Below, in pieces: positions 34,597 through 54,795 of a DNA stretch of 60,201 nt (positions are counted from its first letter, which is position 1; every line of letters starts with the position of its first letter). Made by a program: the position numbers and the translations under genes. The DNA comes from Cryomorphaceae bacterium (GTDB lineage: Bacteria > Bacteroidota > Bacteroidia > Flavobacteriales > Flavobacteriaceae), in the NCBI GenBank assembly GCA_018646865.1, contig JABGTW010000053.1, positions 1 through 60,201 on the forward strand. The letters are read 5' to 3'. Under the pieces are notes generated by a model, which was not told the origin of the DNA, searched no databases, and was given only the letters and a program-made list of their open reading frames with translations.

Positions 34597-34601
34597 ATAC
34601 T

Positions 34602-36296
34602 ATGAAGAATAAAAAAATAAGTGGAGCGGAAGCTGTAGTTCACTCTTTATTAAATGAGGATGTTGATTTAATATGGGGTTATCCAGGCGGTGCAATTATG
34701 CCAGTATATGATGAGTTATATGAATTTCAAGATAAGTTAAAACATATTTTAGCTAGGCATGAACAAGGAGCAATTCATGCAGCTCAAGGTTATGCAAGAT
34801 CTTCTGGTAGAGTTGGTGTAGCGATTGCTACGTCAGGTCCAGGTGCAACTAACCTTGTTACTGGTATTGCAGATGCTCAAATAGATTCAACTCCTATTGT
34901 ATGTATAACTGGTCAAGTTTCTTCTCACCTTTTAGGTTCTGATGCATTTCAAGAAACAGATATAATTGGAATCTCAATGCCAGTAACTAAATGGAACTAT
35001 CAAATAACCAAAGCTTCTGAAATACCTGAAGTTTTTGCTAAAGCTTTTTACATTGCAAAATCAGGAAGACCAGGCCCAGTATTGATAGATATAACAAAAG
35101 ATGCTCAATTTGAATTATTTGATTACAAATATTCAAAATGTAAGGGTATAAGAAGTTACAATCCATTACCAACTATCAGTAATTCTTCAATTGATAATGC
35201 TGTAGAGTTAATTAATAACGCAAAAAATCCTTTTATTGTATGGGGTCAAGGCGTTATTCTAGGAAACGCTGAAAAGGAGTTTAAAGATTTTGTTGAAAAA
35301 AGTGGAATACCAGCAGCATGGACAATTCTTGGTTTATCAGCGCTTCCAACTTCTCATGAACTAAATGTTGGAATGGTTGGGATGCATGGAAATTACGGCC
35401 CTAATATTCTAACGAATAAATGTGATTTACTTATTGCAATTGGTATGAGGTTTGATGATAGAGTTACTGGCGATCCAAAATCTTATGCATCACAAGCTAA
35501 AATAATTCACCTTGATATTGATCCAGCTGAGATAAATAAAAATATTAAGGTAGATGTTCCTGTAATTGGAGACTGTAAAGAGTCACTTAAATTAATTACA
35601 AATAAGATTCAAAAAAAATCATATGATAAATGGATTTCTAGATTTGATGACTTAATGAAAATTGAGTTTGAAAAAGTGATTAACTCTGATTTGAATCCAA
35701 AAAAAGATGGAATAACTATGGGAGAATCAATCATTGCAATCAATGAATTCACAAATGGTGATGCCATTATAGTAACAGATGTTGGTCAACATCAAATGGT
35801 AGCTTGTAGGTATGCTAATTTTATCAAATCAAAAAGTAATATTACATCAGGTGGTTTGGGCACAATGGGATTTGCCCTTCCTGCTGCTATGGGTGCTAAA
35901 ATGGGAGCTTTAAACAGAGAGGTTGTTGCTGTAATTGGTGATGGTGGTTATCAAATGACAATTCAAGAATTAGGTACAATTTTTCAACAACAAATACCAG
36001 TTAAGATTGTTGTTTTAAATAATGATTTCTTAGGAATGGTTCGTCAATGGCAACAATTATTTTTTGATAAAAGATATGCATCTACTGAAATGGTAAATCC
36101 TGACTTTGTTGCAATCGCAAAAGGATATTATTTAGATTCTGAAAGAGTTAAGGATAGAAAGAACTTAAAGCCTGCTGTTGAAAGAATGATTAAATCAAAG
36201 AAGCCTTTTGTTTTAGAAATATGTGTAGAAAAAGAAAATAATGTATTTCCTATGATACCTTCTGGAGCTTCAGTATCTGATGTTAGATTAAATTAA
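34602..36296 (+). CDS. ilvB: Acetolactate synthase large subunit
   Basis: IlvB is the ThDP/FAD enzyme that condenses pyruvate with pyruvate or 2-oxobutyrate (564 residues). The N-terminal GYPGGAIMPVYDEL and the catalytic glutamate in LARHEQGAIHAAQGYAR are clear. The ThDP-binding motif near the C-terminus reads GDGGYQMTIQELGT then VVLNN. GMRFDDRVTGDP in the middle is an acetolactate synthase signature rather than a generic ThDP decarboxylase. It is followed by the regulatory subunit ilvN one base later. Confidence 0.97.
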   Translation: MKNKKISGAEAVVHSLLNEDVDLIWGYPGGAIMPVYDELYEFQDKLKHILARHEQGAIHAAQGYARSSGRVGVAIATSGPGATNLVTGIADAQIDSTPIVCITGQVSSHLLGSDAFQETDIIGISMPVTKWNYQITKASEIPEVFAKAFYIAKSGRPGPVLIDITKDAQFELFDYKYSKCKGIRSYNPLPTISNSSIDNAVELINNAKNPFIVWGQGVILGNAEKEFKDFVEKSGIPAAWTILGLSALPTSHELNVGMVGMHGNYGPNILTNKCDLLIAIGMRFDDRVTGDPKSYASQAKIIHLDIDPAEINKNIKVDVPVIGDCKESLKLITNKIQKKSYDKWISRFDDLMKIEFEKVINSDLNPKKDGITMGESIIAINEFTNGDAIIVTDVGQHQMVACRYANFIKSKSNITSGGLGTMGFALPAAMGAKMGALNREVVAVIGDGGYQMTIQELGTIFQQQIPVKIVVLNNDFLGMVRQWQQLFFDKRYASTEMVNPDFVAIAKGYYLDSERVKDRKNLKPAVERMIKSKKPFVLEICVEKENNVFPMIPSGASVSDVRLN

Positions 36297-36297
36297 A

Positions 36298-36831
36298 ATG
36301 GAAAAGAAAATAAATTATACCATCTCAGTTTATACAGAAAACAATGTAGGTTTACTGCATAGACTTTCTGCAATATTTTTAAAGCGTCACATTAATATCG
36401 AAAGCTTTACCACCTCTGAGTGTGAAATCAAAGATGTTTTTAGATTTATAATTGTTGTTATAATGTCTAAAGAGGATGTTGAAAACATAGCTAAACAGAT
36501 TGAAAAGCAAGTAGAAGTTATAAAAGTATATTTTCATACTGATCATGAAACAATTTTTCAAGAGACAGCTCTTTATAAAATGAAATCATCATCACTTTTT
36601 GAAGAGAAACATATTCAAAATATTATTAAAGAATCTAATGCTAGAATTGTAACTGTTAATCCCGATTTCTTTGTTATAGAAAAAACAGGATTTAGAGATG
36701 ATACAGATAAGTTATATGAAAATTTGGAAGAATACGGACTTCTTCAATTTACAAGATCTGGAAGAATTGCTGTTTCAAAAGAAAAGATGGGTATATCAGA
36801 AATTTTGAATACTTTTAAAAATCAAAAATAA
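36298..36831 (+). CDS. ilvN: Acetolactate synthase small (regulatory) subunit
   Basis: This ACT-domain subunit stimulates IlvB and usually confers valine feedback. The 177 residues start with the ACT strand pattern [34 protein letters not shown]. The second, C-terminal half (about 85-177; [15 protein letters not shown]-like [18 protein letters not shown]) matches the long IlvH-type small subunit rather than the ~95-residue IlvN of E. coli. It lies between ilvB and ilvC with 1- and 5-base gaps. Confidence 0.95.
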
Positions 36832-36836
36832 AAAGA

Positions 36837-38312
36837 ATGAAAAATTATTTTAATAGCTTATCATTTAGAGATAAATTAATGCAACTGGGTAGATGTAGAT
36901 TTATGGACTCATCAGAGTTTAATAATGGTGTTGAGTTTTTAAAGGATAAAAAAATTGCAATTGTAGGTTGTGGCGCTCAAGGTTTACATCAGGGATTAAA
37001 CATGAGAGATTCAGGACTAGATATCTCTTTTGTATTAAGACAATCATCTATAGATTCAAAAAGACAATCATTTATAAACGCATCTTCTAATGATTTTAGT
37101 ATTGGTAATTTTGAAGAAATAATTCCAAACGCAGATATAGTAATTAATCTAACTCCCGATAAAAATCATACTCCAGTTGTTGATCAATTAATGCCATTGA
37201 TGAAAAAAAATTCAATATTATCCTACTCTCACGGATTTAATATTGTTGAAGAAGGTATTAAGGTTAGAGAGGATATTACTGTAATTATGGTTGCTCCAAA
37301 ATCTCCAGGTTCAGAGGTTAGAGAAGAATATCTAAGAGGTTTTGGCGTTCCAACATTAATTGCTGTTCATCCAGAAAACGATATAAATGATATCGGATTT
37401 GATGCTGCAAAAGCCTATGCTGTTTCATTAGGTTCGCATAAAGCAGGTGTGCTTGAATCTTCTTTTGTCGCTGAAGTAAAATCAGATTTAATGGGAGAGC
37501 AAACTATTTTATGTGGAATGCTTCAAACAGGATCAATTCTGTGCTTTGATAGAATGACTGAGTTAGGAGTAGATCCTGCATTTGCATCTAAACTTATTCA
37601 ACATGGATGGGAAACTATTACTGAAGCATTGAAACATGGGGGGATAACTAATATGATGGATAGATTATCAAATCCAGCAAAATTAAAAGCTTATGAGTTA
37701 TCTGAAGAGTTGAAGTCAATTCTTTCGCCTTTATTTATTAAACATATGGATAACATTTTATCTGGTAATTTTTCTGAGACTATGATGAAAGATTGGGAAA
37801 ATGATGACAAAGAACTTTTAAATTGGAGAGAACAAACTAGTCAAACAGCTTTTGAAAAAACTGACCCTAGTTCTAAAGAATTTGAAGAACAGGATTATTT
37901 TAATAATGGAATCTTAATGATTGCTTTTGTGAAAGCTGGAGTAGAATTAGCATATGAAACAATGGTTGAAGCTGGAATTAAGGAAGAGTCCGCATATTAT
38001 GAATCTCTTCATGAGCTTCCTTTAATCGCTAATTTAGTTTCTCGTAAAAAACTTTATGAGATGAATAATATTATCTCAGATACTGCAGAATATGGATGCT
38101 ATTTATTTAATAATGAGGCGATTCCTTTATTATCAAACTTCTTTAAAAGTATTGATAGTGACGTAATAGGATCTAATACTATCAGTAATAATTCAAATTC
38201 AATTGATAATAAAAAACTAATAGAGGTCAATGATTCAATCAGATTTCATTCTATTGAAATTATTGGTGATGAATTAAGACAACATATGACTTCAATGAAA
38301 AAAGTACTGTGA
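36837..38312 (+). CDS. ilvC: Ketol-acid reductoisomerase (class II)
   Basis: IlvC is the NADPH-dependent isomeroreductase of the valine/isoleucine pathway. At 491 residues it is the long, class II form, the same length as E. coli IlvC. The nucleotide-binding glycine motif is [19 protein letters not shown]. The core [26 protein letters not shown] and [13 protein letters not shown] (magnesium-binding Asp/Glu) are intact. NADPH preference is the norm for class II. The gapN gene at the end of this operon is a possible NADPH source. Confidence 0.97.
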
Positions 38313-38315
38313 TAG

Positions 38316-39563
38316 ATGCAATTACCAAATTTAAATGGTGTAAAAAACGCATCCGATAATCTTAAAGATGTATCGATAGTTACTCCATTATTGCTAAACG
38401 AGAGACTATCTAAAAAGTTTAATTCTAGAATTTTCTTAAAAAGAGAAGACCTTCAAAAGGTTAGATCATTTAAAATTAGAGGTGCTTTCAACAAGATTAA
38501 ATCACTTGATTTAGATAATTCAAAAGACAAACAAATAATTTGTGCTAGTGCAGGGAATCATGCTCAAGGCTTTGCATATTCATGTAAAAAGCTAAAAATA
38601 TTTGGAACGGTTTATATGCCTGAAACTACTCCTAAGCAAAAAGTAGATAGAGTTAAAATGTTTGGAGGAGACTTTATTAAAATTATTTTAATTGGTGATA
38701 ATTTTGATGATGCTCAAAAAGAAGCTCAAAAAAAGATCAATGATGATACAATTTTTATTCATCCTTTTGATGATAATAATGTTATTGAAGGTCAAGGAAC
38801 TATTGCATTAGAACTCTTAAATCAGATTGATAAACATTTTGATTATTTAATTATACCTATTGGTGGTGGTGGATTAATTTCTGGAATAATAACCGTTTTT
38901 AAAGAGTTATCACCAAAAACTAAAATAATTGGAGTAGAAGCAAAAGGGGCTCCAGCAATGTTTAAATCAATTATGCAAAATAAAATTATTGAACTTAATA
39001 AAATAGATAATTTTGTTGATGGAGTTTCTATTAGAAAAATTGGAAATATACCTTTTGAAATTTGTAAAGATAATTTAGATGATTTGCTTCTTGTTCCTGA
39101 AGGTAAAGTATGCCAAACGATTCTAGATTTGTACAATAAAGATGGTATAGTGGCTGAGCCAGCTGGAGCAATAGGAATATCGGCTCTTGAAATGTACCAT
39201 GAAAAGTTTACTAATAAAAATGTAGGTGTTTTAATTTGTGGGGGTAACAATGATATCACCAGAATGTCAGAAATTAAAGAAAGAGCTTTACTTTATTCAA
39301 ATCTTAAGCACTACTTTGTTGTAAAATTTCCTCAAAGATCAGGTGCTTTAAAAGAATTCGTCAATAATGTGCTTGGAGAAAATGATGATATTACATTTTT
39401 TGAATATGTAAAAAAGAACAATAGAGAATATACAACGGCTATTGTTGGAATAGAGTTAAAGTTATCTAAAGATTTATTGTACTTAACAAAAAAAATGAAA
39501 GAAAATGGTTTCTTTAGCGAGTATTTAAATGATAAACCAGAAACCTTACGTTTTTTAATATAA
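38316..39563 (+). CDS. ilvA: Threonine ammonia-lyase (threonine deaminase)
   Basis: IlvA is the PLP enzyme converting threonine to 2-oxobutyrate, the entry to isoleucine. In 415 residues the PLP lysine is K53 ([10 protein letters not shown]), [14 protein letters not shown] and the phosphate-binding loop [10 protein letters not shown] follow. The C-terminal ~80 residues form one ACT-like regulatory domain ([16 protein letters not shown]) instead of the two of E. coli IlvA (514 residues). Isoleucine regulation through that domain is likely. It lies in the ilv operon, where it complements the citramalate route encoded in the facing leu operon. Confidence 0.95.
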
Positions 39564-39568
39564 ATAAT

Positions 39569-41146
39569 ATGTCTGCAGCAAACTTTAAAATTGATCAATT
39601 GCATTGTAGGGAATATTTAGTTGATGGTGAACTTAAGAGATGGGATGGTGATACATCTGAAGTATTCTCAACTATTGATTCAAATCCTGATACTCCGTAT
39701 TCTCCAACTTTACTTGGATCTATACCTGATATGGATTCGGAGTCTGCTATCGAAGCTTTAGAATCAGCTAGGAAAGCTTTTAATCGAGGACAAGGTATAT
39801 GGCCAACAATGAAAGTTAGAGATAGATTAAAGGCCATGAAAAGGTTTGCTGATAAAATGAATGAACATAGAGATCAAATAGTTAATCTTTTAATGTGGGA
39901 AATTGGTAAGAACCAGTCTGATTCAGAAAAAGAATTTGATCGTACAGTTAAATATATTTATGATACAATTGATGAGTATAAAAATATAGATAGATCATCT
40001 TCTAGGTTTGAGAAGGATTCTGGAATTCATGCTCACATAAGAAGAGGACCTCTTGGAGTAGTCTTATGCTTGGGACCATATAACTACCCTCTCAACGAGA
40101 CTTTTTGTCTTTTAATTCCTGCAATCTTAATGGGAAATACAACAATATTTAAACCTGCTAAACATGGTGTTCTTTTGATTTCACCTTTATTAAAAGCGTT
40201 TAAGGAGTGCTTCCCTCCAGGAGTAGTAAATATACTTTTTGGAAGAGGTAGAAAAATTTGTCCTCCAATTATGCAAACTGGTCATGTAGATGTTTTAGCA
40301 TTAATAGGTCATAGTTCCTCCGCAGTAGCACTTCAAGATCAACACCCTAATAAGAATAGATTAAGATTAGTTCTCGGACTAGAAGCTAAAAATCCGGGTA
40401 TTATTTTACCTGATGCTGATATGGATTTAACTATCCAGGAATGTGTTTCAGGATCTTTATCTTTTAATGGTCAAAGATGTACTGCTTTGAAAGTATTGTA
40501 TGTTCATGAATCAATAGCTAATGAATTTAATAAAAGATTTTCTGAAGCTGTTGATAATCTAAAATTTGGCATGCCTTGGGAAAAAGATGCTTTTCTTACT
40601 CCTCTTCCTGAACCATCTAAACCTCAATACATTAAGGATCTAATTGAGGATGCTATTTTTAAAGGTGCTAGTGTAATTAATAAAAAAGGTGGAAAAATAA
40701 CAGATAATTATTGCTTTCCTGCAGTTTTATTCCCAGTCAATGATTCTATGAAAGTATTTGAAGAGGAACAATTTGGTCCAGTTGTCCCTATTATTCCATT
40801 CAAAGATATTGATAAACCTTTAGATGATATGGCTAATTCTGATTATGGTCAACAGGTAAGTCTTTTTGGAAGTGATACAAAAAAAATAGGTCCTTTGATA
40901 GATACATTAGCTAATCTAGTCTGTCGAGTAAATCTAAACAGCTCTTGTCAAAGAGGTCCAGATATTTATCCTTTTACTGGTAGAAAAAATTCTGCTGTTA
41001 GTACTTTGAGTGTTCATGATGCCTTAAGAGCTTTCTCTATCAGAACTTTTGTAGCTTCAAAGGATAACGTTCACAATAACAGAATATTGAAAAAATTATT
41101 AGATTCAAATGACTCTAATTTTATTTCAACAGATTATATCCTTTAA
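39569..41146 (+). CDS. gapN: NADP-dependent non-phosphorylating glyceraldehyde-3-phosphate dehydrogenase
   Basis: GapN oxidises glyceraldehyde-3-phosphate to 3-phosphoglycerate while making NADPH. It belongs to the ALDH superfamily (525 residues). Features typical of GapN are [22 protein letters not shown] with [10 protein letters not shown], the glutamate in [10 protein letters not shown], and the catalytic cysteine in [27 protein letters not shown] is the general ALDH motif. It ends the ilv operon, 5 bases after ilvA, and overlaps the convergent leuB by 4 bases. Some other ALDH specificity remains possible. Confidence 0.85.
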
Positions 41147-42210
41147 TTATTAAGTATAAACTCTACTATATAGTCTCCAACTTCATCTGTTGCATAACTC
41201 TTATGATCTTTACTTAAATCAGGAGTAGTAATTCCTTTTAATAGTGAGTTTTCAACTGCTTTATTTATAAGGTTTGTTTCATTTTTAAGATTAAAAGTAT
41301 GATCTAGCATCATAGAAAGTGATAAAATTGAAGCTATAGGGTTAGCAATTTTTTTACCAGTAGCTTCTGGATAAGAACCATGAATCGGTTCATATAAAGC
41401 ATTATTTGATCCTACAGAGGCTGAAGGCATTAGACCTATTGATCCTGATATTACTGAAGCTTCATCAGTTAGAATATCTCCAAAAAGGTTTGATGTTATT
41501 AATACATCGTATGAGCTAGGCCACTGAATAAGTCTCATTGCAACAGCATCAACAAATTCATATGAAACTTTAACTTCAGGATAATTTTTTTCCATACTTT
41601 GAACAGTCTCTCTCCAAAGTCTAGAAGTTTCAAGTATATTGGCTTTATCAACACAACATAGTTTTTTTGATCTTTTTTGTGCATATTCGAATCCCATTTT
41701 TGCAATTCTGATAATCTCATCTCTTGAATATTGACATGTATCAAATGCATAATTATCATCATTTTTCCTTCCTCTTTCACCAAAATAAATTCCACCAGTA
41801 AGCTCTCTCACAAAAAGTATATCAGTCCCAGTTATCCTATCTTCTTTAATAGGAGACATACCTAAAAGCGAATCAAACACTATGGTGGGTCTCAAATTTG
41901 CATAAAGACCCAGCTTCTTTCTCAGTTTAAGTAACCCTTGTTCAGGTCTTACTTTAGCTTTTGGATCATTATCATATTTAGGGTCTCCAATAGCTCCAAA
42001 TAAAACTGCATCAGACTCTAGACATAGTTTATGAGTTTCATCAGGATAAGGATCATTATAATGGTCTATTGCAATAGCACCAACTAATCCATGATTCATT
42101 TCAACCTCATGATTAAATTTTTTTGCTAGGCAATTAAGAACTTTTATAGACTCGTTTGTAACCTCCGGCCCAATTCCATCTCCTGGAAGTACAGCTATCT
42201 TTAATTTCAT
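41143..42210 (-). CDS. leuB: 3-isopropylmalate dehydrogenase
   Basis: LeuB oxidises 3-isopropylmalate in leucine synthesis; the same enzyme oxidises 3-methylmalate in the citramalate route to isoleucine. The 355 residues carry [18 protein letters not shown], the [14 protein letters not shown] region, [12 protein letters not shown] and the [17 protein letters not shown] metal/isopropylmalate site, plus [17 protein letters not shown]. It is last in the leuA-leuC-leuD-cimA-leuB operon, with a 4-base overlap with the preceding synthase gene. Confidence 0.96.
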
Positions 42211-43727
42211 ATTTTTTCCGTGTTTAACATTTTTTCTGTTGCCTTAATTGCAGCTACTGTTTGATCAGTATCTAATCCTCTTGTTTTATATTTCTTTATA
42301 CCAGTATCCCAAGTAATTGTTGTTTCACAAAATGCATCAGAATGGCTGCCTGGAGGAATTCTAACCGCATAGTCAATTAATTTAGGGAGAAGTCTTTTTT
42401 GATTAGAATATATTTTTTTAAGAGCATTCATAAATGCATCAAATTGACCATCTCCTGAACAACTTTCTTGATAAAGCTTATTATTAATTAACAAAGACAA
42501 TGATGCAGATGGTCTAAGTGTCTTTGCATGTGTTAATACATAGGATTCAATAACTATATTTTTCTTTTTAGTAGGATAATCTAACGCATCACTTATAATG
42601 TATGGTAAGTCTTCAATAGTTACCTTTTCTTTTTTATCACCAAGTTCAATAACTTTAGATGTAATAATTCCTAACTCTTCATTGTTTAGTTTAATTCCTA
42701 ACTCGTCTAAATTTTTCTTAATATTTGCTTTTCCTGATGTTTTTCCAAGTGCGTATTTTCTTTTTCTTCCAAATCGACTTGGATTTAAGTTGTTGTAGTA
42801 AAGATTCTTTTTGTTATCCCCATCAGCGTGTACTCCAGCTGTCTGAGTAAAAACGTTTTCTCCAACAATTGGTTTGTTAGAAGATACAGTTTGACCAGAA
42901 AAAGTTGAAATTAGTTTACTCGCTTTAAATAAACTCTTTTCATCAACATTGATTTCAATATTTGGTAAAAAATCTTTAATTGCCGCAACAGCACTTGACA
43001 AGGGAGTGTTTCCAGCTCTTTCGCCCATTCCGTTTATAGTTAAATGTAATCCATTACATCCAGCCCTTATTGCCTCCATTGAGTTTCCAACACTAAGATC
43101 ATAGTCATTGTGACCATGAAAATCAATATGAAATTTAGGAAACTTTGATTTAACTTCTTTAATAAATTCATAGGTTTCAGTATGAGTCAAAATTCCAAGT
43201 GTGTCAGGTAATAATATTCTCTTTATTTTTTGATTATATAAAAAACCTAAAAATTCAATAACATATTCTTTGCTGTTTTTCATTCCATTACTCCAGTCCT
43301 CTAGGTATACATTAGTTTGAATTGAGTTTTTTTCTGCTGTATTTATTATTTTAGAAATATCATCATAGTGATTTTTGGGTGTTTTTTTTAATTGATGTTC
43401 TAGATGATTAAGAGATCCTTTTGTAAGTAAATTTTGAACTTTACATCCAGATTCTAATAACCATTCTATTGATTTGCCATTATCAAGAAATGTTAAGACT
43501 TCAATTTTATCAATATGATTATTTTCTGTTGCCCAATTAGTTATTTCTTTAACTGAATTAAGCTCACCTTCAGAAACTCTTGCAGATGCAACTTCAATTC
43601 TATCAATCTTCAATTCTTCTAAAAGTAGTTTAGCAATTGTTAGTTTTTCTTTTGGGGAATATGAAACTCCAGATGTCTGTTCACCATCTCTTAGAGTTGT
43701 GTCCATTATTTCTATATTGCGATTCAT
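42207..43727 (-). CDS. cimA: Citramalate synthase (LeuA-like, Leptospira CimA type)
   Basis: This 506-residue LeuA-family enzyme comprises a TIM barrel (1-~290) and a C-terminal LeuA-type regulatory domain (~370-506). Catalytic R13-D14 (TTLRDGEQ), T176 (LPDTLG) and HGHND are present. Its N-terminal half closely follows Leptospira citramalate synthase as I remember it. The residues lining the pyruvate pocket there (L81, L104, Y144) correspond to L78, L101 and Y141 here (offset 3). LEDWSNG and LLTKGSLNHLE are shared. It should condense pyruvate and acetyl-CoA to citramalate, a threonine-independent start for isoleucine. A 2-isopropylmalate synthase role is less likely because a separate leuA is in the operon. 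Confidence 0.85.
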   Translation of the reverse strand: MNRNIEIMDTTLRDGEQTSGVSYSPKEKLTIAKLLLEELKIDRIEVASARVSEGELNSVKEITNWATENNHIDKIEVLTFLDNGKSIEWLLESGCKVQNLLTKGSLNHLEHQLKKTPKNHYDDISKIINTAEKNSIQTNVYLEDWSNGMKNSKEYVIEFLGFLYNQKIKRILLPDTLGILTHTETYEFIKEVKSKFPKFHIDFHGHNDYDLSVGNSMEAIRAGCNGLHLTINGMGERAGNTPLSSAVAAIKDFLPNIEINVDEKSLFKASKLISTFSGQTVSSNKPIVGENVFTQTAGVHADGDNKKNLYYNNLNPSRFGRKRKYALGKTSGKANIKKNLDELGIKLNNEELGIITSKVIELGDKKEKVTIEDLPYIISDALDYPTKKKNIVIESYVLTHAKTLRPSASLSLLINNKLYQESCSGDGQFDAFMNALKKIYSNQKRLLPKLIDYAVRIPPGSHSDAFCETTITWDTGIKKYKTRGLDTDQTVAAIKATEKMLNTEKI

Positions 43728-44323
43728 TAATAGATGAATTTGTTTGCAAAGCTAGAAATTTCCTTTTTCTTATTTAATAAATAATCAATATCATCATATC
43801 CATTAGACATGTTATCCTTTTTATAGACACTGATTTTAAACCTTTCTTTTTTATCTAATTTTTTGATTTTAAATTCTTGATTTTCCAGATTAACTTCAAA
43901 GGTACTATTAGGGTCTTCATCTATTTGAGAGAAAATTTCAGCTAAAAAAGGATCAGAAACTTGAATCGGAAGGACTCCAATATTAAGACAATTATTTTTA
44001 AATATATCTGCAAAAAAACTTGATACTACTACTCTAAACCCATAATCATATATAGCCCAAACTGCATGCTCTCTTGATGAACCACATCCAAAATTTTTTC
44101 CAGCAATTAATATTTTACCATTGTAATTAATATTATTTAAAGGGAATGATTCAACAGGTGAGTCATCAGAATTATATCTCCAGTCTCTAAATAGATTATT
44201 CCCAAAACCTTTTCTTTCTGTTGCTTTTAAAAATCTTGCTGGAATTATTTGGTCAGTATCAACATTATCAATATTTAATGGAACCGCAGTACTATTTAGT
44301 ATTTTAAATTTATCGTAAGCCAT
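43727..44323 (-). CDS. leuD: 3-isopropylmalate dehydratase small subunit
   Basis: LeuD is the swivelling-domain subunit of the aconitase-family isomerase (198 residues, E. coli 201). It has the NIDNVDTDQIIPARFLK motif, GKNFGCGSSREHAVWA at the substrate-binding loop and NCLNIGVLPI. It works with LeuC, encoded 4 bases upstream, and the pair also isomerises citramalate in organisms with CimA. Its stop overlaps the cimA start by one base. Confidence 0.96.
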   Translation of the reverse strand: MAYDKFKILNSTAVPLNIDNVDTDQIIPARFLKATERKGFGNNLFRDWRYNSDDSPVESFPLNNINYNGKILIAGKNFGCGSSREHAVWAIYDYGFRVVVSSFFADIFKNNCLNIGVLPIQVSDPFLAEIFSQIDEDPNSTFEVNLENQEFKIKKLDKKERFKISVYKKDNMSNGYDDIDYLLNKKKEISSFANKFIY

Positions 44324-44327
44324 ATAA

Positions 44328-45719
44328 TTAGATTATTTCTCTTGGGTCTGTAATTTTTCCAGTTATTGCTGTTGCTGCAGCTACCAGTGGGCTAGCTAAA
44401 AGTGTTCTAGCTCCTGGACCTTGCCTTCCCTCAAAATTTCTATTAGTAGTACTAACAGCATATTTTCCTTTTGGAATTTTATCATCATTCATTGCTAAAC
44501 AAGCTGAACAGCCAGGTTCTCTTAGTTTAAATCCTGAATCGGTTAAAATATCAAGTATTCCTTCATCTTTTATACTTTTCAGAACTTTATGTGAGCCTGG
44601 AACAAGCCAAGCATCAACATTATCAGATTTTCTTTTCCCTTTAATTATACTAGCAAAAGTTCTAAAATCTTCAATTCTACCATTTGTACAACTACCTAAA
44701 AAGACATAATCAATTTTTTTACCAATCATTTGATCTCCTTCTTTAAAATCCATATAATCTAGAGCCTTTAGATATGATGCTTTTGAATCTGATTTTTTTG
44801 ATGTAGGAATTGATTTCGAAATAGGTATAGCCATTCCAGGATTAGTTCCATATGTAATCATAGGTTCTATCTCTTCTCCTTTAAAATTGTATTCTTTATC
44901 AAAAACAGCTCCCTTATCGGTTTTTAATTTAGACCAATAACTTATAGCTTTATCCCATTCTTCTTCTTTTGGCGCGTATTCTTTACCCTTTATATACTTA
45001 AATGTTTTTTCATCAGGGGCAATCATTCCACCTCTAGCACCCATTTCAATACTTAGGTTACACACGGTCATTCTTCCTTCCATACTCATTTCTTTAAATA
45101 CTTTACCTGAGTATTCTACAAAAAAACCAGTAGCTCCAGAGGAAGACAACTTTGAAATTATAAATATTGCAACATCTTTAGGTGTAACATGAGACTTAAG
45201 TTCTCCATCAACATTAATTCTCATTTTTTTTGGTTTCTGTTGCATAATAGATTGACATGCTAAAACCATTTCTACTTCAGAAGTTCCAATTCCAAATGCT
45301 ATCGCGCCAAATGCTCCATGAGTAGATGTATGAGAATCACCACAAACAATTGTTAGTCCAGGCTGAGTAATACCGTTTTCGGGCCCAACAACATGAACTA
45401 TTCCATTCTTTTTGTGCCCTAATCCCCAAAAATCAATTCCATGCTCGTTACAATTTTTTTCTAATGTTTTAACCTGAATGGCAGATAATTCATCTTTTAT
45501 TGGTAGATGTTGATTTATTGTAGGGGTGTTATGGTCTGCAGTTGCAAATGTTCTTTCTGGATACATTACTTTAAGCCCCCTATTTTTAAGACCTACAAAT
45601 GCTACAGGACTTGTAACTTCATGAATGAAATGTCGATCAATAAATAATACATCAGGTCCATCTTCAATCTTTTCAATCACATGGGAGTCCCAGACTTTAT
45701 CAAAAATTGTCTTAGTCAT
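44328..45719 (-). CDS. leuC: 3-isopropylmalate dehydratase large subunit
   Basis: LeuC is the [4Fe-4S] subunit of isopropylmalate isomerase (463 residues, E. coli 466). Cluster cysteines are in [13 protein letters not shown] and in [38 protein letters not shown] and [17 protein letters not shown]-type sequence (split across the C-terminus) are signatures. It overlaps leuA upstream by 8 bases and sits 4 bases before leuD, so the genes are probably translated in a coupled way. Confidence 0.97.
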
Positions 45720-46872
45720 ATTTAATATTTTGCTTTTTAAGCATAACAGGAAAATCGGATTCTGTTACTTCTTTCTTTTTATCTGCGACAATTAAAAATT
45801 CACTATAAACATTGTCTAGTTCATTCTTACTCAAATTTACTCCAAATTCTTTCATTCTAAAAGCTAAAGCAGCTCTTCCGCTTCTTGCAGTTAAAACAAT
45901 GGATGATTTATCAACTCCTACATCTAAAGGGTCTATTATTTCATAAGTCTCCCTTTTCTTAATCACTCCATCTTGATGAATTCCTGAACTATGAGCAAAA
46001 GCATTTGAACCAACAATTGCTTTGTTGGGTTGAACAGGCATGCCCATTAAATCAGAAACTTTTTGGCTTGTATCATTAAGAAGTTTTGAGTTAATATTAG
46101 TATATAAATCTAGTTCAGAATGCTGTTTTAATACCATAACAACTTCTTCTAGGGATGTGTTTCCTGCTCTTTCACCAATTCCGTTAATAGTACATTCAAT
46201 TTGTCTTGCACCATTTATTACTCCATAAATTGAATTAGCGGTAGCTAGTCCCAAATCATTATGACAATGGCAGGAAATAGTAACATTTTCAATACCCTTA
46301 ACATTATCGATTAGAAATTTAATCTTATTTCCGTATTCATCTGGAAGGCAATAACCTGTCGTGTCAGGTATATTTAAAACAGTAGCACCTGATTTAATTA
46401 CTTCTTCACAAACCCTAGCAAGAAATTCATTATCTGTTCTACCCGCATCTTCAGCATAAAATTCAACATCTTCTACATATTTTTTGGCATGAGAAACTGA
46501 CTTTTTAGCTAATTCAATTATAGATTCTTTATTCGAATTAAATTTATGTTTGATATGAATCTCAGAGGTTCCTATACCAGTATGAATCCGAGGTTTTATT
46601 GCACTTTTAAGTGACTCTGCTGCAACATCAATATCTTTTTCATTTGCTCTACTAAGTGCACAAACTGAAGCGTTCTTAATAATTTTTGAAATTTCCACTA
46701 CAGATTTAAAATCTCCAGGACTTGATATTGGGAATCCAGCTTCTATAATATCTGCACCAAGAAAATCAATTCTTTCAGCTAAGATTAACTTACTTTTAGT
46801 ATCAAGCTTACAGCCTGGCACTTGCTCGCCATCTCTCAATGTGGTGTCAAATATTTTAACCTGATTTTTCAT
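45712..46872 (-). CDS. leuA: 2-isopropylmalate synthase lacking the regulatory domain
   Basis: LeuA condenses 3-methyl-2-oxobutanoate with acetyl-CoA, the first leucine step. Using the ATG at 46872 it has 386 residues. The catalytic barrel is complete: [74 protein letters not shown] and [12 protein letters not shown]. The C-terminal leucine-sensing domain of the 520-residue E. coli enzyme is missing; the protein ends soon after the helical subdomain. A TTG one codon upstream (46875) is an unlikely alternative start. First gene of the leu operon. Confidence 0.94.
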
Positions 46873-46997
46873 CAATTACTAAATTATTGCTTTAATGCTG
46901 ATACTTAAAAAAAAGTATATTAATTTTACAATACCCGATTTATGTTTTATTATTATAAATATCTGTAAATTAACATATTAATTAAAAATTTAATACA

Positions 46998-50142: not shown

Positions 50143-52050
50143 ATGAGCAAAATTATTGGAATAGATTTAGGTACAACCAACTCATGTGTATCTGTTATGG
50201 AAGGAAGTGAGCCAGTTGTAATTCCTAACGCTGAAGGCAAAAGAACTACACCATCTGTTATAGCATTTGTTGAGGATGGCGAGATTAAAGTTGGAGATCC
50301 TGCAAAAAGACAGGCTGTAACTAATCCTGAAAAAACAATTGCATCCATTAAAAGATTTATGGGTAATAAGTTTAGTGAATCATCTAGTGATGTTAAAACT
50401 GTTGCATATAAAGTCGTCAAGGGTGACAATGATACACCTAGAGTAGATATTGATGGAAGGTTATATACACCTCAAGAGTTATCTGCTATGGTACTTCAAA
50501 AAATGAAAAAAACTGCCGAGGATTATTTAGGCCAAACTGTAACTGAGGCTGTAGTTACTGTTCCTGCATATTTTAATGATTCGCAAAGACAAGCTACTAA
50601 AGAAGCAGGTGAAATTTCAGGATTGAAAGTTCAAAGGATAATTAATGAACCTACTGCTGCTGCTTTAGCTTACGGTATGGATAAAGGTGGTAAAGATAAA
50701 AAGATAGCAGTTTATGATCTTGGTGGTGGTACATTCGATATATCAATTTTAGAATTAGGTGATGGGGTTTTCGAAGTTTTATCAACTAATGGAGATACTC
50801 ATTTAGGTGGAGATGATTTTGATCAAGTAATTATAGATTTTTTAGCAGAAGAATTTAAAAACAGTGAACAAATTGATTTAAGAAAAGACCCTATGGCTCT
50901 TCAGAGACTAAAAGAAGCAGCTGAAAAAGCTAAAATTGAACTTTCTTCATCAGCACAAACTGAAATTAATTTACCATATGTAACAGCAACATCTTCAGGA
51001 CCAAAACATCTTGTAACTACATTAACAAGAGCAAAGTTTGAAAAACTATCTGATACCTTAGTAAAGAGATCTATGGAGCCTGTTAAAAAAGCATTGAAAG
51101 ATGCAAGTTTAACCAAAAATGACATAGATGAGGTAATTTTAGTTGGAGGATCAACTAGAATACCTATAATTCAAAAAGAGGTTGAAGCATTATTTGGAAA
51201 AAAACCTTCTAAAGGAGTTAACCCTGATGAAGTTGTTGCGGTTGGAGCAGCTATTCAAGGTGGGGTTCTTTCTGGGGATGTAGAGGATGTACTTCTTCTA
51301 GATGTGACGCCTTTATCACTTGGTATAGAAACAATGGGTAATGTTATGACTAAGCTTATAGAGTCAAACACAACAATTCCTACAAAAAAATCTCAAGTCT
51401 TTTCTACTGCGGCTGATAATCAACCTTCTGTAGAAATTCATGTTTTACAGGGAGAGAGACCAATGGCAAAAGATAATAAAACGATTGGAAGGTTCCATTT
51501 AGATGGTATTCCTCCAGCTCAAAGAGGTACCCCTCAAATTGAGGTTACATTTGATATTGATGCTAACGGTATAATTAATGTAAGTGCATTAGATAAGGCT
51601 ACAAATAAATCTCAAGATATAAGAATTGAGGCTTCTTCTGGTTTAACTGAGGAAGAAATTGAAAAAATGAAAAAAGAAGCTGAAGCTAATGCTGATGCTG
51701 ACCAAAAAGCAAAAGAAGAAGTTGATAAATTAAATAGTGCTGATCAGATGATATTCCAAACTGAAAAACAACTTAAAGATTTTGGAGATAAATTATCTGA
51801 TGATAAAAAGAAACCTATTGAATCAGCATTAGAAGATTTAAAAAAAGCACATGAATCTAAAGATCTAGAAAAGATTGATGAGACTTTAAATACTATAAAT
51901 GAAGCATGGAAAAATGCATCAGAAGAAATGTATAAAGCTCAGGCTGAGGGTGAGGCTAAACCAGAAGATACTGGAGAAGCTCCTTCAGGTAAAGATACTA
52001 AAGGTGATGATGTTCAAGATGTTGATTTTGAAGAGGTAAAAGAAGAATAG
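50143..52050 (+). CDS. dnaK: Molecular chaperone DnaK (Hsp70)
   Basis: DnaK is the ATP-dependent cytoplasmic chaperone. The 635 residues have the ATPase signatures [29 protein letters not shown] and [15 protein letters not shown], then the linker [15 protein letters not shown]. The substrate-binding domain and a helical lid end in the acidic tail [12 protein letters not shown]. Neither dnaJ nor grpE is adjacent. No canonical TAnnTTTG box lies in the 107-base upstream gap; instead there is a palindrome and a partial repeat. A MenI-type thioesterase gene starts 5 bases after the stop. Confidence 0.98.
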
Positions 52051-52055
52051 TTTCT

Positions 52056-52475
52056 ATGGATAAAGAACATATTCTAGATCAAGTTAATTCTCGCTGTAAA
52101 GGAACTTTAGTATCTACTCTAAATATTGTCTTTACTGATATAAACCTTAAAGAACATTCACTAAATGCTTGCATGGAAGTTACTCCTAATCTTCATCAAC
52201 CAGATGGTGTCCTTCATGGAGGTGCCACTGCTGCTCTTGCTGAAACTGTTGGGAGTTCTGCCTCAGCTATTTTTTGTAAAAAAGAAAATCAATTGCTTCG
52301 AGGTATTGAGCTGTCCATTAATCATGTTAGGGGTATAAGTGAAGGTTTTGTTTATGCAAAAGCAGAGCCAATTCATATGGGACGCACTATGCAATTATGG
52401 AAAATATCTATTAAAGATGAAAATCAAAAAGATATTTCCTTTGCTAAATTGACTACATTAACTATTAGTAAATAA
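52056..52475 (+). CDS. menI: Hotdog-fold thioesterase, MenI (DHNA-CoA hydrolase) type
   Basis: This 139-residue hotdog thioesterase looks like E. coli YdiI/MenI, which hydrolyses 1,4-dihydroxy-2-naphthoyl-CoA in menaquinone synthesis. The active-site block HQPDGVLHGGATAALAETVGS places Q48, H54, G55 and the catalytic E63 at the same numbers as in YdiI, and the NHVRGISEG segment also matches. PaaI-type enzymes normally use an Asp instead. It lies 62 bases upstream of a MenA-like prenyltransferase, the enzyme that uses its product, which strengthens the assignment. Other aryl-CoA substrates remain possible. Confidence 0.82.
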   Translation: MDKEHILDQVNSRCKGTLVSTLNIVFTDINLKEHSLNACMEVTPNLHQPDGVLHGGATAALAETVGSSASAIFCKKENQLLRGIELSINHVRGISEGFVYAKAEPIHMGRTMQLWKISIKDENQKDISFAKLTTLTISK

Positions 52476-52537
52476 AACACTAAAAAATTTTTATTTAAGG
52501 ATGTCAGAATGTAAATTTGATACTCTAAAATTATTAT

Positions 52538-53893
52538 ATGAAAAGTGTTATTATTTGTGATATGGAGGGTTTAATTACAAACCTAAATGACCGTGCTGCT
52601 GATATGTTCGGTTATAACCCTAAAGACCTTGTTGGAATTAAAAGAGTCTCAATCTTTTCTCCGGGTGAAATTGTTTTACAAAATGTATTAGGATGGTTAA
52701 AAGATGCTAATGAAACAGGTGAACATGTTACCAAGACAAATTTTGTAAGAAAAGATGGTTCTATATTTAATGCTAAAATTAAAATAACACCAAATTTTGC
52801 TGATGGAAAAGATAATCCACAAACAGGTTATTGTGGTATAACTGAAGAAATAAATGAAGATGTAAATATTGAAATAAGTTTAGCAACAAAGATTATTAAG
52901 GGTGTTGCAATTACAAGAGTTGGTTTTGCATCTGCTTCATTATTTCCTGTTTTCGCTATTGGATGTTATTATGCAGGAATTGGAGATAGCTTGTTTAGTC
53001 CTATATCTTTGGCGTTAACTACTTTTGGTATACTTTTTATTCATTTATTTTCAAACTTATATAATGATTATTTTGATGTTACTCATGGAACAGATGAGGC
53101 AAACACTGAGTATTTTAATGCTGGCATGAATTCTTCTATGCTTAAAGGAGCTCAACTTTCAGGTGGAAGTAGAGCTGTTGAGTTAGGTTTAATTACTCTT
53201 AAGGGGACAAAAACTCTAGCTAATATTATGTTTATGTTTGGTCTTTTAACTGCTGCAGGAATTCTATATATAAGTTATTTAAATACAGGATCAACTAGTA
53301 ATTCATATCATTCTGCAATTATAGCATTAATTGGAGTTTTAATAGGGTATTTCTATACTGCTAAACCTATAAAACTTTCATCTCGTTATGGGCTTGGGGA
53401 AATTGCAATTTTTCTTTCATTTGGTCCTCTTCTTACACTTGGATCAGGATTTGCAATCTCAATGGAAACTATTCAACTTTTTTCAAATGAATTTTATAAT
53501 TTAATGATTTTAGGAGTTCCTATTGGACTTCTTACCACCAATATTCTTTTTATTAATCAATTCCCTGATTATACTTCGGATAAAAAAGTTGGAAAAAATC
53601 ATCTAGTTGTTCTATTTGGAAAAAAGGCATCAAGATGGATTTATGCTATTAATTTAGCTTTAGCAACTGGATCTTTGTATTATATGGCTGTTGAAAACAT
53701 AGTAAATGAGACACAAGATTCACTATTTTTGTATGTATTGATACCTATAACTATTATATATTCATTTTATCTTATTTCCGGATTATTTAAATATTACAAC
53801 AATAGAAAACTTATAAAATATAATATTCATACTATTTATTTTCATATGTTATTTTCATTTATTTATATGATAATTTTAGCTAACTTCCAATAA
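52538..53893 (+). CDS. PAS domain fused to MenA-type (UbiA) prenyltransferase
   Basis: The 451 residues combine two modules. Residues 1-~105 are a PAS sensor domain (SVIICDMEGLITNLND, AADMFGYNPKDLVGI, FVRKDGSIFNAKI, GYCGITEEINED). Residues ~115-451 are a UbiA-superfamily membrane enzyme with about nine helices. Its first Asp motif is NLYNDYFDVTHGTD (N176, D177, D180, D186), followed by LSGGSR at 208-212; its second is FPDYTSDKKVGK (D344, D348). This motif set fits MenA, which prenylates DHNA for menaquinone. The frame is continuous and no other start codon separates the modules. MenA enzymes are normally about 300 residues with no PAS domain, so the fusion is unusual. Confidence 0.88.
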   Translation: MKSVIICDMEGLITNLNDRAADMFGYNPKDLVGIKRVSIFSPGEIVLQNVLGWLKDANETGEHVTKTNFVRKDGSIFNAKIKITPNFADGKDNPQTGYCGITEEINEDVNIEISLATKIIKGVAITRVGFASASLFPVFAIGCYYAGIGDSLFSPISLALTTFGILFIHLFSNLYNDYFDVTHGTDEANTEYFNAGMNSSMLKGAQLSGGSRAVELGLITLKGTKTLANIMFMFGLLTAAGILYISYLNTGSTSNSYHSAIIALIGVLIGYFYTAKPIKLSSRYGLGEIAIFLSFGPLLTLGSGFAISMETIQLFSNEFYNLMILGVPIGLLTTNILFINQFPDYTSDKKVGKNHLVVLFGKKASRWIYAINLALATGSLYYMAVENIVNETQDSLFLYVLIPITIIYSFYLISGLFKYYNNRKLIKYNIHTIYFHMLFSFIYMIILANFQ

Positions 53894-54795
53894 TGTTTCT
53901 ATTTGATCAATCATATAGATTAAAGAATTTTTGGTATTATATACTAGGTTCATTTATTCTGATTCTTTTCAGTTTTATTGGTCAACTTCCGATGATCCCA
54001 TTCTTGCCTACAGAATTGCCAAGCCCGGATGCTAACCCTATGGATCTTTTTAAATCCATTCCTTCTAATCTTAGATTTTTCCTTATACTGCTTAGTTTTG
54101 TAGCTGTTGTTCCAGGGATATGGTTGGTTGTAAAAAAACTTCATGATCTTCCTATAATGTCAATTTTATCAGGTAGAAAAAAAATTGATCTTGAGAGAGT
54201 TATGTTTTCATTTATGTTATGGGGATCTATAGTTTCAGCTTTTGTTTTTCTAGAATATTCTCTTAACCCTGAAAGCTATGAAATTAACTTTAAGCTTAAA
54301 GAATTTTTAATTTTAGCCGTTATAGCAATATTATTTATCCCGATTCAAACAAGTGTCGAAGAAATTGTCTTTAGAGGGTATTTAATGCAAGGTTTTGGTC
54401 ATTGGTTAAATAGCAGATTTATGGCTTTATTTCTCACCTCAGTTGTATTTGGATCTATGCATTTAGCTAATCCTGAATTAACAGCATTAGGGTATGAATT
54501 TATTTTCCTTTATATCACAGTAGGGTTCGTGCTCGGTATTATGACTTTAATGGATGATGGTCTTGAACTAGCAATTGGCTTTCATGCTGCAAATAATCTT
54601 ATAGCATCTCTTCTTTTAACTGCAGACTGGACAGTATTTCAGACTGAGTCTATTTTAATTGATATATCTGAGCCTAGTCTTGGTATAACAGATTGGTTAG
54701 CTCCTTTTATCATATACCCTATACTTTTAGCAATCTTTGCTAGAAAATATTCTTGGACTAATTGGAAAGAGAAACTGTTTTCAAAAGTCAGATAA
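53893..54795 (+). CDS. CPBP family intramembrane metalloprotease
   Basis: This membrane protease of the CAAX-prenyl-protease/bacteriocin-processing (ABI) family has 300 residues and about eight hydrophobic segments. All three conserved motifs are present: E156-E157 with R161 (EEIVFRGY), FGSMH ending at H190, and H231 (HAANNL). Its start overlaps the PAS-MenA stop (TAATG), implying translational coupling. Substrate unknown. CPBP proteins recur near menaquinone genes in flavobacteria as far as I recall, but a functional link is inference. It converges on the GNAT gene with a 15-base overlap. Confidence 0.9.
   Translation: MFLFDQSYRLKNFWYYILGSFILILFSFIGQLPMIPFLPTELPSPDANPMDLFKSIPSNLRFFLILLSFVAVVPGIWLVVKKLHDLPIMSILSGRKKIDLERVMFSFMLWGSIVSAFVFLEYSLNPESYEINFKLKEFLILAVIAILFIPIQTSVEEIVFRGYLMQGFGHWLNSRFMALFLTSVVFGSMHLANPELTALGYEFIFLYITVGFVLGIMTLMDDGLELAIGFHAANNLIASLLLTADWTVFQTESILIDISEPSLGITDWLAPFIIYPILLAIFARKYSWTNWKEKLFSKVR

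What the first reader, a model, noticed from the sequence alone, without database searches (positions are those of the whole stretch)
52056..53893. PAS sensor domain fused to a MenA-type prenyltransferase, next to a MenI-type thioesterase
Seen: one continuous 451-codon frame with a PAS domain (1-~105) and a complete UbiA-type membrane domain with both Asp-rich motifs (N176/D177/D180/D186 and D344/D348). The preceding gene encodes a hotdog thioesterase with the E. coli YdiI/MenI active-site residues Q48, H54 and E63. Known: MenI releases DHNA and MenA prenylates DHNA to make menaquinone, so adjacent genes carry out consecutive steps. Inference: the PAS domain could let a redox, oxygen, light or ligand signal adjust menaquinone synthesis directly at the enzyme. 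I do not know of a characterised enzyme with this layout.
Basis: partly seen in the sequence, partly recalled or inferred. Interest (0 to 1): 0.75.

Follow-up and report, generated by a model that had tools for sequence, protein, structure and literature searches.

The report
PAS sensor fused to UbiA prenyltransferase
A small-genome bacterium, like relatives found mostly in the sea, carries a membrane enzyme of the kind that attaches lipid tails to aromatic rings, built in one piece with a sensor domain, in a genome where the usual vitamin K (menaquinone) genes searched for were not found.

Summary
The fusion is real: window 52538-53893 encodes 451 residues, a PAS domain followed by a complete UbiA prenyltransferase domain. 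It is a conserved family: 9 of 199 genomes of its family, matches in 28 of 296 of its order, 10 of 149 of another class. PAS and UbiA are under equal purifying selection; PAS cysteines C7 and C99 are invariant in 78 of 78 full-length frames from 80 named loci.

The "MenI then MenA" reading is not supported. All nine fusion genomes of the family lack MenB, which 187 of the other 190 have; MqnA/D is absent in 9 of 9. The UbiA domain lies outside a MenA clade with 100/99 support, though its best profiles are MenA-type, below cut-off. The thioesterase is adjacent in 53 of 80 loci. In the own genome and a 95%-complete congener the fusion is the only UbiA found besides haem O synthase; in another class it coexists with true MenA.

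Best reading: a quinone-type prenyltransferase with a built-in sensor, head group imported or of unknown origin. Nine paper searches found no description.

The parts
52538..53893 (+). PAS-UbiA fusion gene, 451 codons plus stop
   Evidence: same frame in 8 further family genomes
52538..52852 (+). PAS domain, residues 1-105
   Evidence: Pfam PAS_9 over cut-off; PAS fold in the model
52556..52558 (+). codon of invariant Cys7, in the first PAS strand of the model
   Evidence: 78 of 78 full-length frames; strand 3-8
52832..52834 (+). codon of invariant Cys99, in the last PAS strand of the model
   Evidence: 78 of 78 full-length frames; 35 of 35 rows of A2; strand 95-104
52892..53890 (+). UbiA membrane domain, residues 119-451
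   Evidence: Pfam UbiA 137-411; model matches UBIAD1 and other UbiA structures
53054..53095 (+). first Asp-rich motif, residues 173-186 (N176, D177, D180, D186)
   Evidence: those residues invariant in 35 of 35
53567..53581 (+). second Asp-rich motif, residues 344-348 (D344, D348)
   Evidence: those residues invariant in 35 of 35
52056..52475 (+). hotdog thioesterase gene; substrate unknown
   Evidence: Pfam 4HBT 57.3 bits, TIGR00369 98.2 bits, both over cut-off; adjacent in 53 of 80 named loci
53893..54795 (+). CPBP/Rce1-like intramembrane protease gene, start overlapping the fusion's stop
   Evidence: Pfam Rce1-like 58.7 bits, cut-off 22.4; follows the fusion in 71 of 80 named loci
50143..52050 (+). 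dnaK, conserved upstream neighbour (named by inspection)
   Evidence: within 1.5 kb upstream in 66 of 80 named loci

Best explanation
The gene encodes a membrane prenyltransferase of the UbiA superfamily with its own PAS sensor. Shown: one continuous, conserved, selected frame; intact UbiA motif residues; a PAS fold with two invariant cysteines; no MenB and no MqnA/D found in the nine family genomes that carry it; in the own genome and a congener no other UbiA enzyme found except haem O synthase. Inferred: it attaches a polyprenyl chain to the aromatic head group of a respiratory quinone, because the congener G187 keeps succinate dehydrogenase and polyprenyl synthase homologues and no other enzyme found could do that step. 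Inferred: the head group is not supplied by the classical or futalosine route in these genomes; it is imported (DHNA or a relative) or made by an unrecognised route. Inferred, weaker: the PAS domain reads redox state or a bound ligand, possibly through C7 and C99, and tunes the enzyme, as cysteines in the PAS domains of ArcB and EvgS take part in responses to quinones.
For: Frame and domains. Motif residues invariant in 35 of 35. Family-wide conservation. Purifying selection equal in both parts. Cysteines 78 of 78. MenB found in 0 of 9 fusion genomes against 187 of 190 others. MqnA/D 0 of 9. UbiA content of G000 and G187. sdhA, sdhB and ispB homologues in G187. Best curated models are MenA-type; nearest solved sequence relative is UBIAD1. 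Precedent for PAS cysteines and quinones: PMC8174306 (abstract and passages).
Against: No substrate, product or activity is shown. The nine family genomes may be one clade (62/63), so loss of MenB may be one event unrelated to the fusion. Whether fusion-free members of the other families have MenB was not tested. f25 genomes have a PAS-free MenA beside a ubiE homologue, so there the fusion is not needed for that step; G616 and G724 also have MqnA-type genes. 4-Hydroxyphenylpyruvate dioxygenase is present in 17 of 19 fusion genomes tested outside the own family, so one head-group source is open there. The genomes are incomplete (66-95%). C7-C99 distance not measured; the EvgS authors assume that their two cysteines do not pair within one protomer.
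Confidence: 0.45

Rival explanations
1. Salvage (a special case of the best explanation): these bacteria lost head-group synthesis, import DHNA or a similar naphthoate from neighbours, and the fusion prenylates it; the sensor matches prenylation to supply or redox state.
For: MenB and MqnA/D not found in 9 of 9 family fusion genomes; profiles nearest to MenA; menD, menF, menE, menC not found in about half of G187; oral Bacteroidota that lack five menaquinone genes grow on supplied DHNA (PMC9704088, abstract) and menaquinones are growth factors in the gut (PMC5738691, abstract).
Against: UbiE, which the oral auxotroph's 'two genes' presumably include, was also not found in the sampled half of G187; free DHNA in open ocean is unproven; the UbiA domain is outside the MenA clade.
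Confidence: 0.25
2. One reading: MenI releases DHNA, the fusion is MenA, and PAS tunes classical menaquinone synthesis.
For: MenA-type profiles rank first; hotdog catalytic residues present; genes adjacent in the window and in 53 of 80 named loci.
Against: MenB not found in 9 of 9 nor over cut-off in 15 of 15 fusion genomes of other families; outside the MenA clade; no MenA or MenI cut-off met; hotdog not adjacent in 26 of 80.
Confidence: 0.07
3. The enzyme prenylates something other than a respiratory quinone head group (a specialised lipid or pigment), or the PAS domain is only structural, for dimerisation or membrane placement, and senses nothing.
For: UbiA enzymes have many substrates (general knowledge); f25 genomes have a separate MenA; no PAS cofactor is known; one UbiA of G878 has a PNPOx-type domain in the same place.
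Against: Own-genus genomes would then have no quinone prenyltransferase found at all; PAS residues are invariant more often than UbiA residues (48 of 105 against 95 of 326 in nine homologues).
Confidence: 0.25

Closest known systems
MenA, 1,4-dihydroxy-2-naphthoate polyprenyltransferase (TIGR00751, PRK06080 models)
   Same: UbiA fold; MenA-type models rank first in the window protein and six other PAS fusions
   Different: No cut-off met; about 28% identity to E. coli MenA against 36-46% for 21 flavobacterial MenA loci; outside the MenA clade; PAS domain in front; no MenB in the nine family genomes
UBIAD1 (8djk)
   Same: Nearest solved relative by sequence profile (46.8 bits) and by fold
   Different: No PAS domain; 21% identity in the fold match
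ArcB and EvgS PAS domains
   Same: Cytoplasmic PAS domain with two cysteines linked to quinone redox state (PMC8174306, abstract and passages)
   Different: There the PAS domain drives a histidine kinase; [quoted passage not shown] here first and last strands)
EntH/MenI hotdog thioesterases (neighbour gene)
   Same: Hotdog family, TIGR00369 over cut-off, recalled catalytic residues present
   Different: Neither EntH nor MenI model reaches its cut-off; EntH scores higher
Ubi-297 (PMC9235831, start of abstract in a listing only)
   Same: UbiA-like prenyltransferase from marine Flavobacteria among others
   Different: Not compared by sequence here; no PAS domain mentioned in what I saw

Membership tests
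UbiA prenyltransferase superfamily | PF01040 over cut-off and both Asp-rich motifs | tested here: met
   72.3 bits, cut-off 34.2; motif residues invariant in 35 of 35; fold match
MenA | curated MenA model over its cut-off | tested here: not met
   best 75.8 bits against 225 (TIGR02235), 70.2 against 264, 56.3 against 102.15 (TIGR00751)
MenA | inside the MenA clade | tested here: not met
   17 MenA rows form a clade at 100/99 without any fusion; holding the nine family fusions with them p-AU 0.023, the groups having been chosen after the tree was seen
MenA | genome makes DHNA through MenB | tested here: not met
   MenB found in 0 of 9 family fusion genomes; 0 of 24 fusion genomes over cut-off
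MenA | prenylates DHNA | not testable with these tools
   needs an assay
MenI (neighbour gene) | curated MenI model over its cut-off | tested here: not met
   87.3 against 185 and 84.7 against 226 bits
MenI (neighbour gene) | Gln, His and Glu catalytic positions (recalled) | tested here: met
   Q48, H54, E63
PAS domain | Pfam PAS model over cut-off and PAS fold | tested here: met
   PAS_9 35.9 against 27; TIGR00229 37.2 against 22.9; 3lyx fold match
LOV photoreceptor | adduct-forming cysteine in the NCRFLQ motif (recalled) | tested here: not met
   motif not seen in A2; the corresponding stretch reads GKKRVSIFS or similar
haem-binding PAS (FixL, DosP type) | axial histidine (recalled) | tested here: not met
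   no invariant histidine in the PAS part of A2
quinone-responsive PAS (ArcB/EvgS type) | redox-active cysteines in the PAS domain | tested here: inconclusive
   two invariant cysteines; redox activity not testable here

The most novel reading that the evidence does not exclude
Small-genome marine Bacteroidota run respiration on a quinone whose head group comes from neither known menaquinone route (an undescribed pathway or community supply), and the enzyme that commits the head group to the membrane carries a cysteine-based PAS redox sensor, so that quinone supply is set at the enzyme by the state of the pool it feeds.
Probability: 0.2. Interest if true: 0.85.

Novelty: new variant of a known kind. 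Interest (0 to 1): 0.6.

Why it matters
If right, a group of small-genome marine bacteria has no recognised way to make the head group of the electron carrier on which respiration depends, and the one candidate enzyme left has a sensor built in. Two questions become testable: what quinone these bacteria use, and whether quinone synthesis can be controlled by redox state or a ligand inside a single protein. It also warns that annotating such genes as MenA would hide a missing pathway.

Tried and rejected
Second MenA: not found in the own genome nor in the other eight family fusion genomes, as far as those incomplete genomes go. The extra UbiA genes L039, L041 and L042 lie beside mevalonate-type kinases (by eye), group together in the trees, and L041 is nearest to PRK12872, below its cut-off. 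L051 matches no NCBIfam model at E 1e-5.

Chlorobia as the home of the f25/f15 fusions: a search for the FMO protein found nothing in 11 genomes, but no control genome rang either, so it decides little.

Homogentisate/plastoquinone route, suggested by a homogentisate dioxygenase near the fusion in L260 (hmgA over cut-off) and, by eye, in L261: 4-hydroxyphenylpyruvate dioxygenase is over cut-off in 1 of 9 family fusion genomes and 0 of 2 of f15, but in 9 of 9 of f59/f64 and 8 of 8 of f25. So it is rejected as a general source and for most of the own family, but stays open for f59, f64 and f25. It was over cut-off in 6 of 16 compact MenB-bearing genomes included as contrast.

Divergent MenB: three of the best crotonase hits score 297-334 bits on enoyl-CoA hydratase models; two of them score about 163-164 on MenB there, the third did not list MenB among its best 25.

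Light or haem sensing: recalled motif residues not seen. A sequence hit to a designed-looking repeat protein (7rdr) was ignored as a chance match.

In one search the part of the script meant for ordinary MenA frames printed nothing; one search replaced it (it found no frame for L030 and L032). In the tree five rows were left out: L213, L216, L204, L200 (long or odd) and E. coli UbiA (cut at the end of the fetched stretch). L264 sits with the fusions in the weakly supported quick tree but with MenA at 98/97 in the careful one; I treat its place as unknown. L074 (broken frame) and L096 (cut by a contig end) were left out of the 78; partial or broken order-level matches (L166-L173) were not used for residue counts.

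Full report
What is there. Window 52538-53893 holds one unbroken 451-codon frame. Pfam finds PAS_9 at residues 3-94 (35.9 bits, cut-off 27) and UbiA at 137-411 (72.3 bits, cut-off 34.2). The upstream gene, 52056-52475, is a hotdog thioesterase; the downstream gene, 53893-54795, is a CPBP/Rce1-like intramembrane protease whose start codon overlaps the fusion's stop, so the two are probably co-translated (co-translation is inference). A dnaK gene lies just upstream (named by inspection). An AlphaFold2 model from 50 aligned sequences (pLDDT 84.3, pTM 0.79) matches UBIAD1 over the membrane part and a PAS structure over the N-terminal part.

It is a family. Of 199 genomes drawn from the own taxonomic family, 9 including the own carry the full-length protein at 55% identity or more, all with genomes of 1.2-1.8 Mb; the other matches are mostly frames of about 300 residues matched over the UbiA part, or PAS stretches of other, mostly long frames. 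Of 296 genomes of the order, 28 match at E 1e-25 or better, some of them partial or broken (f1 1, f59 9, f64 16, f68 2); of 395 of the phylum, 12; of 149 of the class of G224, 11, of which 10 have the PAS domain, one of these split over two contigs. A scan of the named genome collection found 157 pattern matches, 136 of them relatives, of which the best 80 were kept. Both patterns lie in the PAS part, so that scan could not find PAS-free relatives. The titles name uncultured Flavobacteriales, Flavobacteriaceae, Cryomorphaceae and Bacteroidetes, with a few Marinoscillum, Flammeovirgaceae and others; isolate names suggest mostly marine sources (inference). G187, the congener, has a contig C3 of 142,248 bases, the same length as CACNIG010000003.1 (AG-893-B06), so the two are probably one record.

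Both halves are under constraint. In nine family homologues 48 of 105 PAS residues and 95 of 326 UbiA residues are invariant. Over 66 pairs of 12 close relatives mean dN is 0.087 for PAS and 0.089 for UbiA, with mean dS 1.23 (63 finite pairs) and 1.29. Two cysteines, C7 and C99, are invariant in 78 of 78 full-length frames from the 80 named loci; the only other cysteine in the first 120 residues is at position 81, in two of them. They are kept in the other class: C99 in 35 of 35 rows of A2, C7 in 34, the exception being a row cut at an internal ATG whose open frame carries it too. In the model C7 is in strand 3-8 and C99 in strand 95-104; in PAS folds these strands are neighbours (general knowledge). 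I could not measure the distance. The LOV cysteine motif and a haem histidine (both recalled) are not seen.

Not an ordinary MenA. The best curated models are MenA-type in the window protein and in six other PAS fusions scanned, but none reaches its cut-off. E. coli MenA has about 28% identity to the fusion and 36-46% to 21 of 21 flavobacterial MenA loci. In a maximum-likelihood tree of 60 UbiA domains, 17 MenA rows (12 flavobacterial, E. coli, four of f25) form one clade with 100/99 support and no fusion in it. Holding the nine family fusions together with MenA gives p-AU 0.023; the groups were chosen after the quick tree was seen, which weakens that p. All 31 fusions as one clade is neither shown nor rejected (p-AU 0.41). 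A UbiA of G878 has a PNPOx-type domain (PF01243, 44.1 bits, cut-off 28.1) where the fusions have PAS; it joins the fusions weakly and MenA at 98/97 on a long branch, so its kinship is open.

The pathway around it is missing. MenB was found at E 1e-80 or better in 187 of the 199 family genomes, 186 of them over the curated cut-off (handles G000-G198 as). The 12 without it are all nine fusion genomes plus G015 (84% complete), G067 (87%) and G147 (73%). Fisher p is 2e-13, but the nine may be one clade (62/63), so this may be one event rather than nine. If losses to incompleteness were independent, nine misses would have a chance of 1.3e-8. In 15 further fusion genomes from other families no match reaches the MenB cut-off, and the three best-hit proteins scanned are nearest to enoyl-CoA hydratases. 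I did not test whether fusion-free relatives in those families have MenB. MqnA/D is absent in 9 of 9 family fusion genomes, and in 8 of 8 ordinary family genomes included as contrast; it is strong in G616 and G724 (236 and 227 bits), 70-100 bits in G428 and G292, 31-36 bits in G281 and G334, below cut-off in G224 and G326, and absent in the other seven of those fifteen. 4-Hydroxyphenylpyruvate dioxygenase is over cut-off in 1 of 9 family fusion genomes, 9 of 9 of f59/f64, 8 of 8 of f25 and 0 of 2 of f15.

UbiA content. G000 and G187 have two matches each, haem O synthase (in G000 beside cytochrome oxidase genes, by inspection) and the fusion; so do G183 and G065. G149 shows only the fusion. 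The extra genes over cut-off in G081, G136 and G095 belong to a mevalonate-linked group. In f25 three PAS-free MenA proteins pass the NCBIfam cut-off (L218, L219, L220), a fourth (L217) joins them in the tree, and all four lie beside a ubiE homologue. There the fusion is an additional MenA-like enzyme.

A partial look at G187. In 601,069 bases, about half of it, E. coli queries found homologues of sdhA, sdhB and ispB, weak partial matches to menH and menB, the fusion itself with menA, and nothing for menD, menF, menE, menC, ubiE, ubiC or nuoB at E 1e-3; a flavobacterial MenD stretch found nothing either. As controls, such queries found menB in 10 of 10 and menD in 6 of 10 short control loci and ubiE in 4 of 4 f25 loci. 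So the organism has a quinone-dependent enzyme, but half a genome cannot prove the rest absent.

Neighbours. In the 80 named loci (tblastn at 1e-6) the hotdog gene lies just upstream in 53, is not found there in 26 and cannot be judged in 1; the CPBP gene follows in 71; DnaK lies within 1.5 kb upstream in 66. In three f64 stretches a small gene of the pterin carbinolamine dehydratase kind follows the fusion (L250 by NCBIfam, 99.4 bits under a cut-off of 133; L252 and L257 by eye). In several f25 stretches the fusion lies between what look like purH and folC (by eye).

How it most likely works. The UbiA domain transfers a polyprenyl chain to an aromatic acid. In the own genus it is the only enzyme found that could complete a respiratory quinone (inference by elimination, from an 82% and a 95% complete genome). 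The head group is imported or made by a route not recognised. The PAS domain, cytosolic by analogy with other UbiA enzymes (inference), reads a signal; the invariant cysteine pair makes thiol-disulphide or quinone sensing the most concrete idea. In EvgS, changes of two PAS cysteines allow activation without oxygen and ubiquinone is needed for activation; the same paper cites ArcB's PAS cysteines as oxidised by quinones; its authors assume that the two EvgS cysteines do not pair within one protomer (PMC8174306: abstract and passages). DHNA auxotrophy in oral Bacteroidota (PMC9704088: abstract and section list) and menaquinones as gut growth factors (PMC5738691: abstract and section list) are precedents for salvage.

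Literature. Four searches aimed at the architecture and five at the pathway gave no listed paper that describes a PAS-UbiA or PAS-MenA protein; only the listings were looked at, apart from the papers named here. Subscription papers and domain databases were not searched. PMC9235831 (Ubi-297) and PMC5133447 (a Bacteroidetes-derived six-gene cluster in algal plastids) were seen only in listings; PMC12324825 (methyl-plastoquinones in Nitrospira) as abstract and section list.

Verdict. Observation confirmed; interpretation partly supported. The architecture is a new variant of a known kind. Its interest lies less in PAS control of ordinary menaquinone synthesis than in the missing pathway around it.

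Noticed in passing
L264 8647-10182 (G878:C23), also L174: A MenA-like UbiA domain fused to an N-terminal PNPOx-type (split-barrel) domain (PF01243 over cut-off). Its place in the UbiA trees differs.
   Followed up: partly
L255 6852-7571 (G605): A CREG/HugZ-like, PNPOx-related protein directly upstream of the PAS-UbiA gene on the same strand.
   Followed up: partly
L217-L220 (f25 genomes): A ubiE homologue beside PAS-free MenA in genomes of 99-100% completeness where MenB is not over cut-off and MqnA/D is absent or weak: the head-group source is unclear there too.
   Followed up: partly
L111 (contig titled Candidatus Methanomethylicia archaeon): A PAS-UbiA gene 56% identical to the window's on a 3.2 kb contig labelled archaeal, close to the Flammeovirgaceae-type rows; probably a mis-binned contig.
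   Followed up: no
L131 (titled Rhodothermaeota bacterium MED-G19): Its fusion is nearest to that of a Flammeovirgaceae MAG (L106; 100/99), so one of the two labels may be wrong.
   Followed up: no
L074; L166/L256 (G654); L169 and L172 (G635): PAS-UbiA frames interrupted by stops or shifts in draft assemblies; left as they are. Error or decay cannot be told apart.
   Followed up: no
G015, G067, G147: Three family genomes with neither MenB nor the fusion, 73-87% complete; may be incompleteness.
   Followed up: no
window 32923-46875: A long run of genes that look like branched-chain amino acid synthesis (ilv and leu genes), on both strands (by inspection).
   Followed up: no
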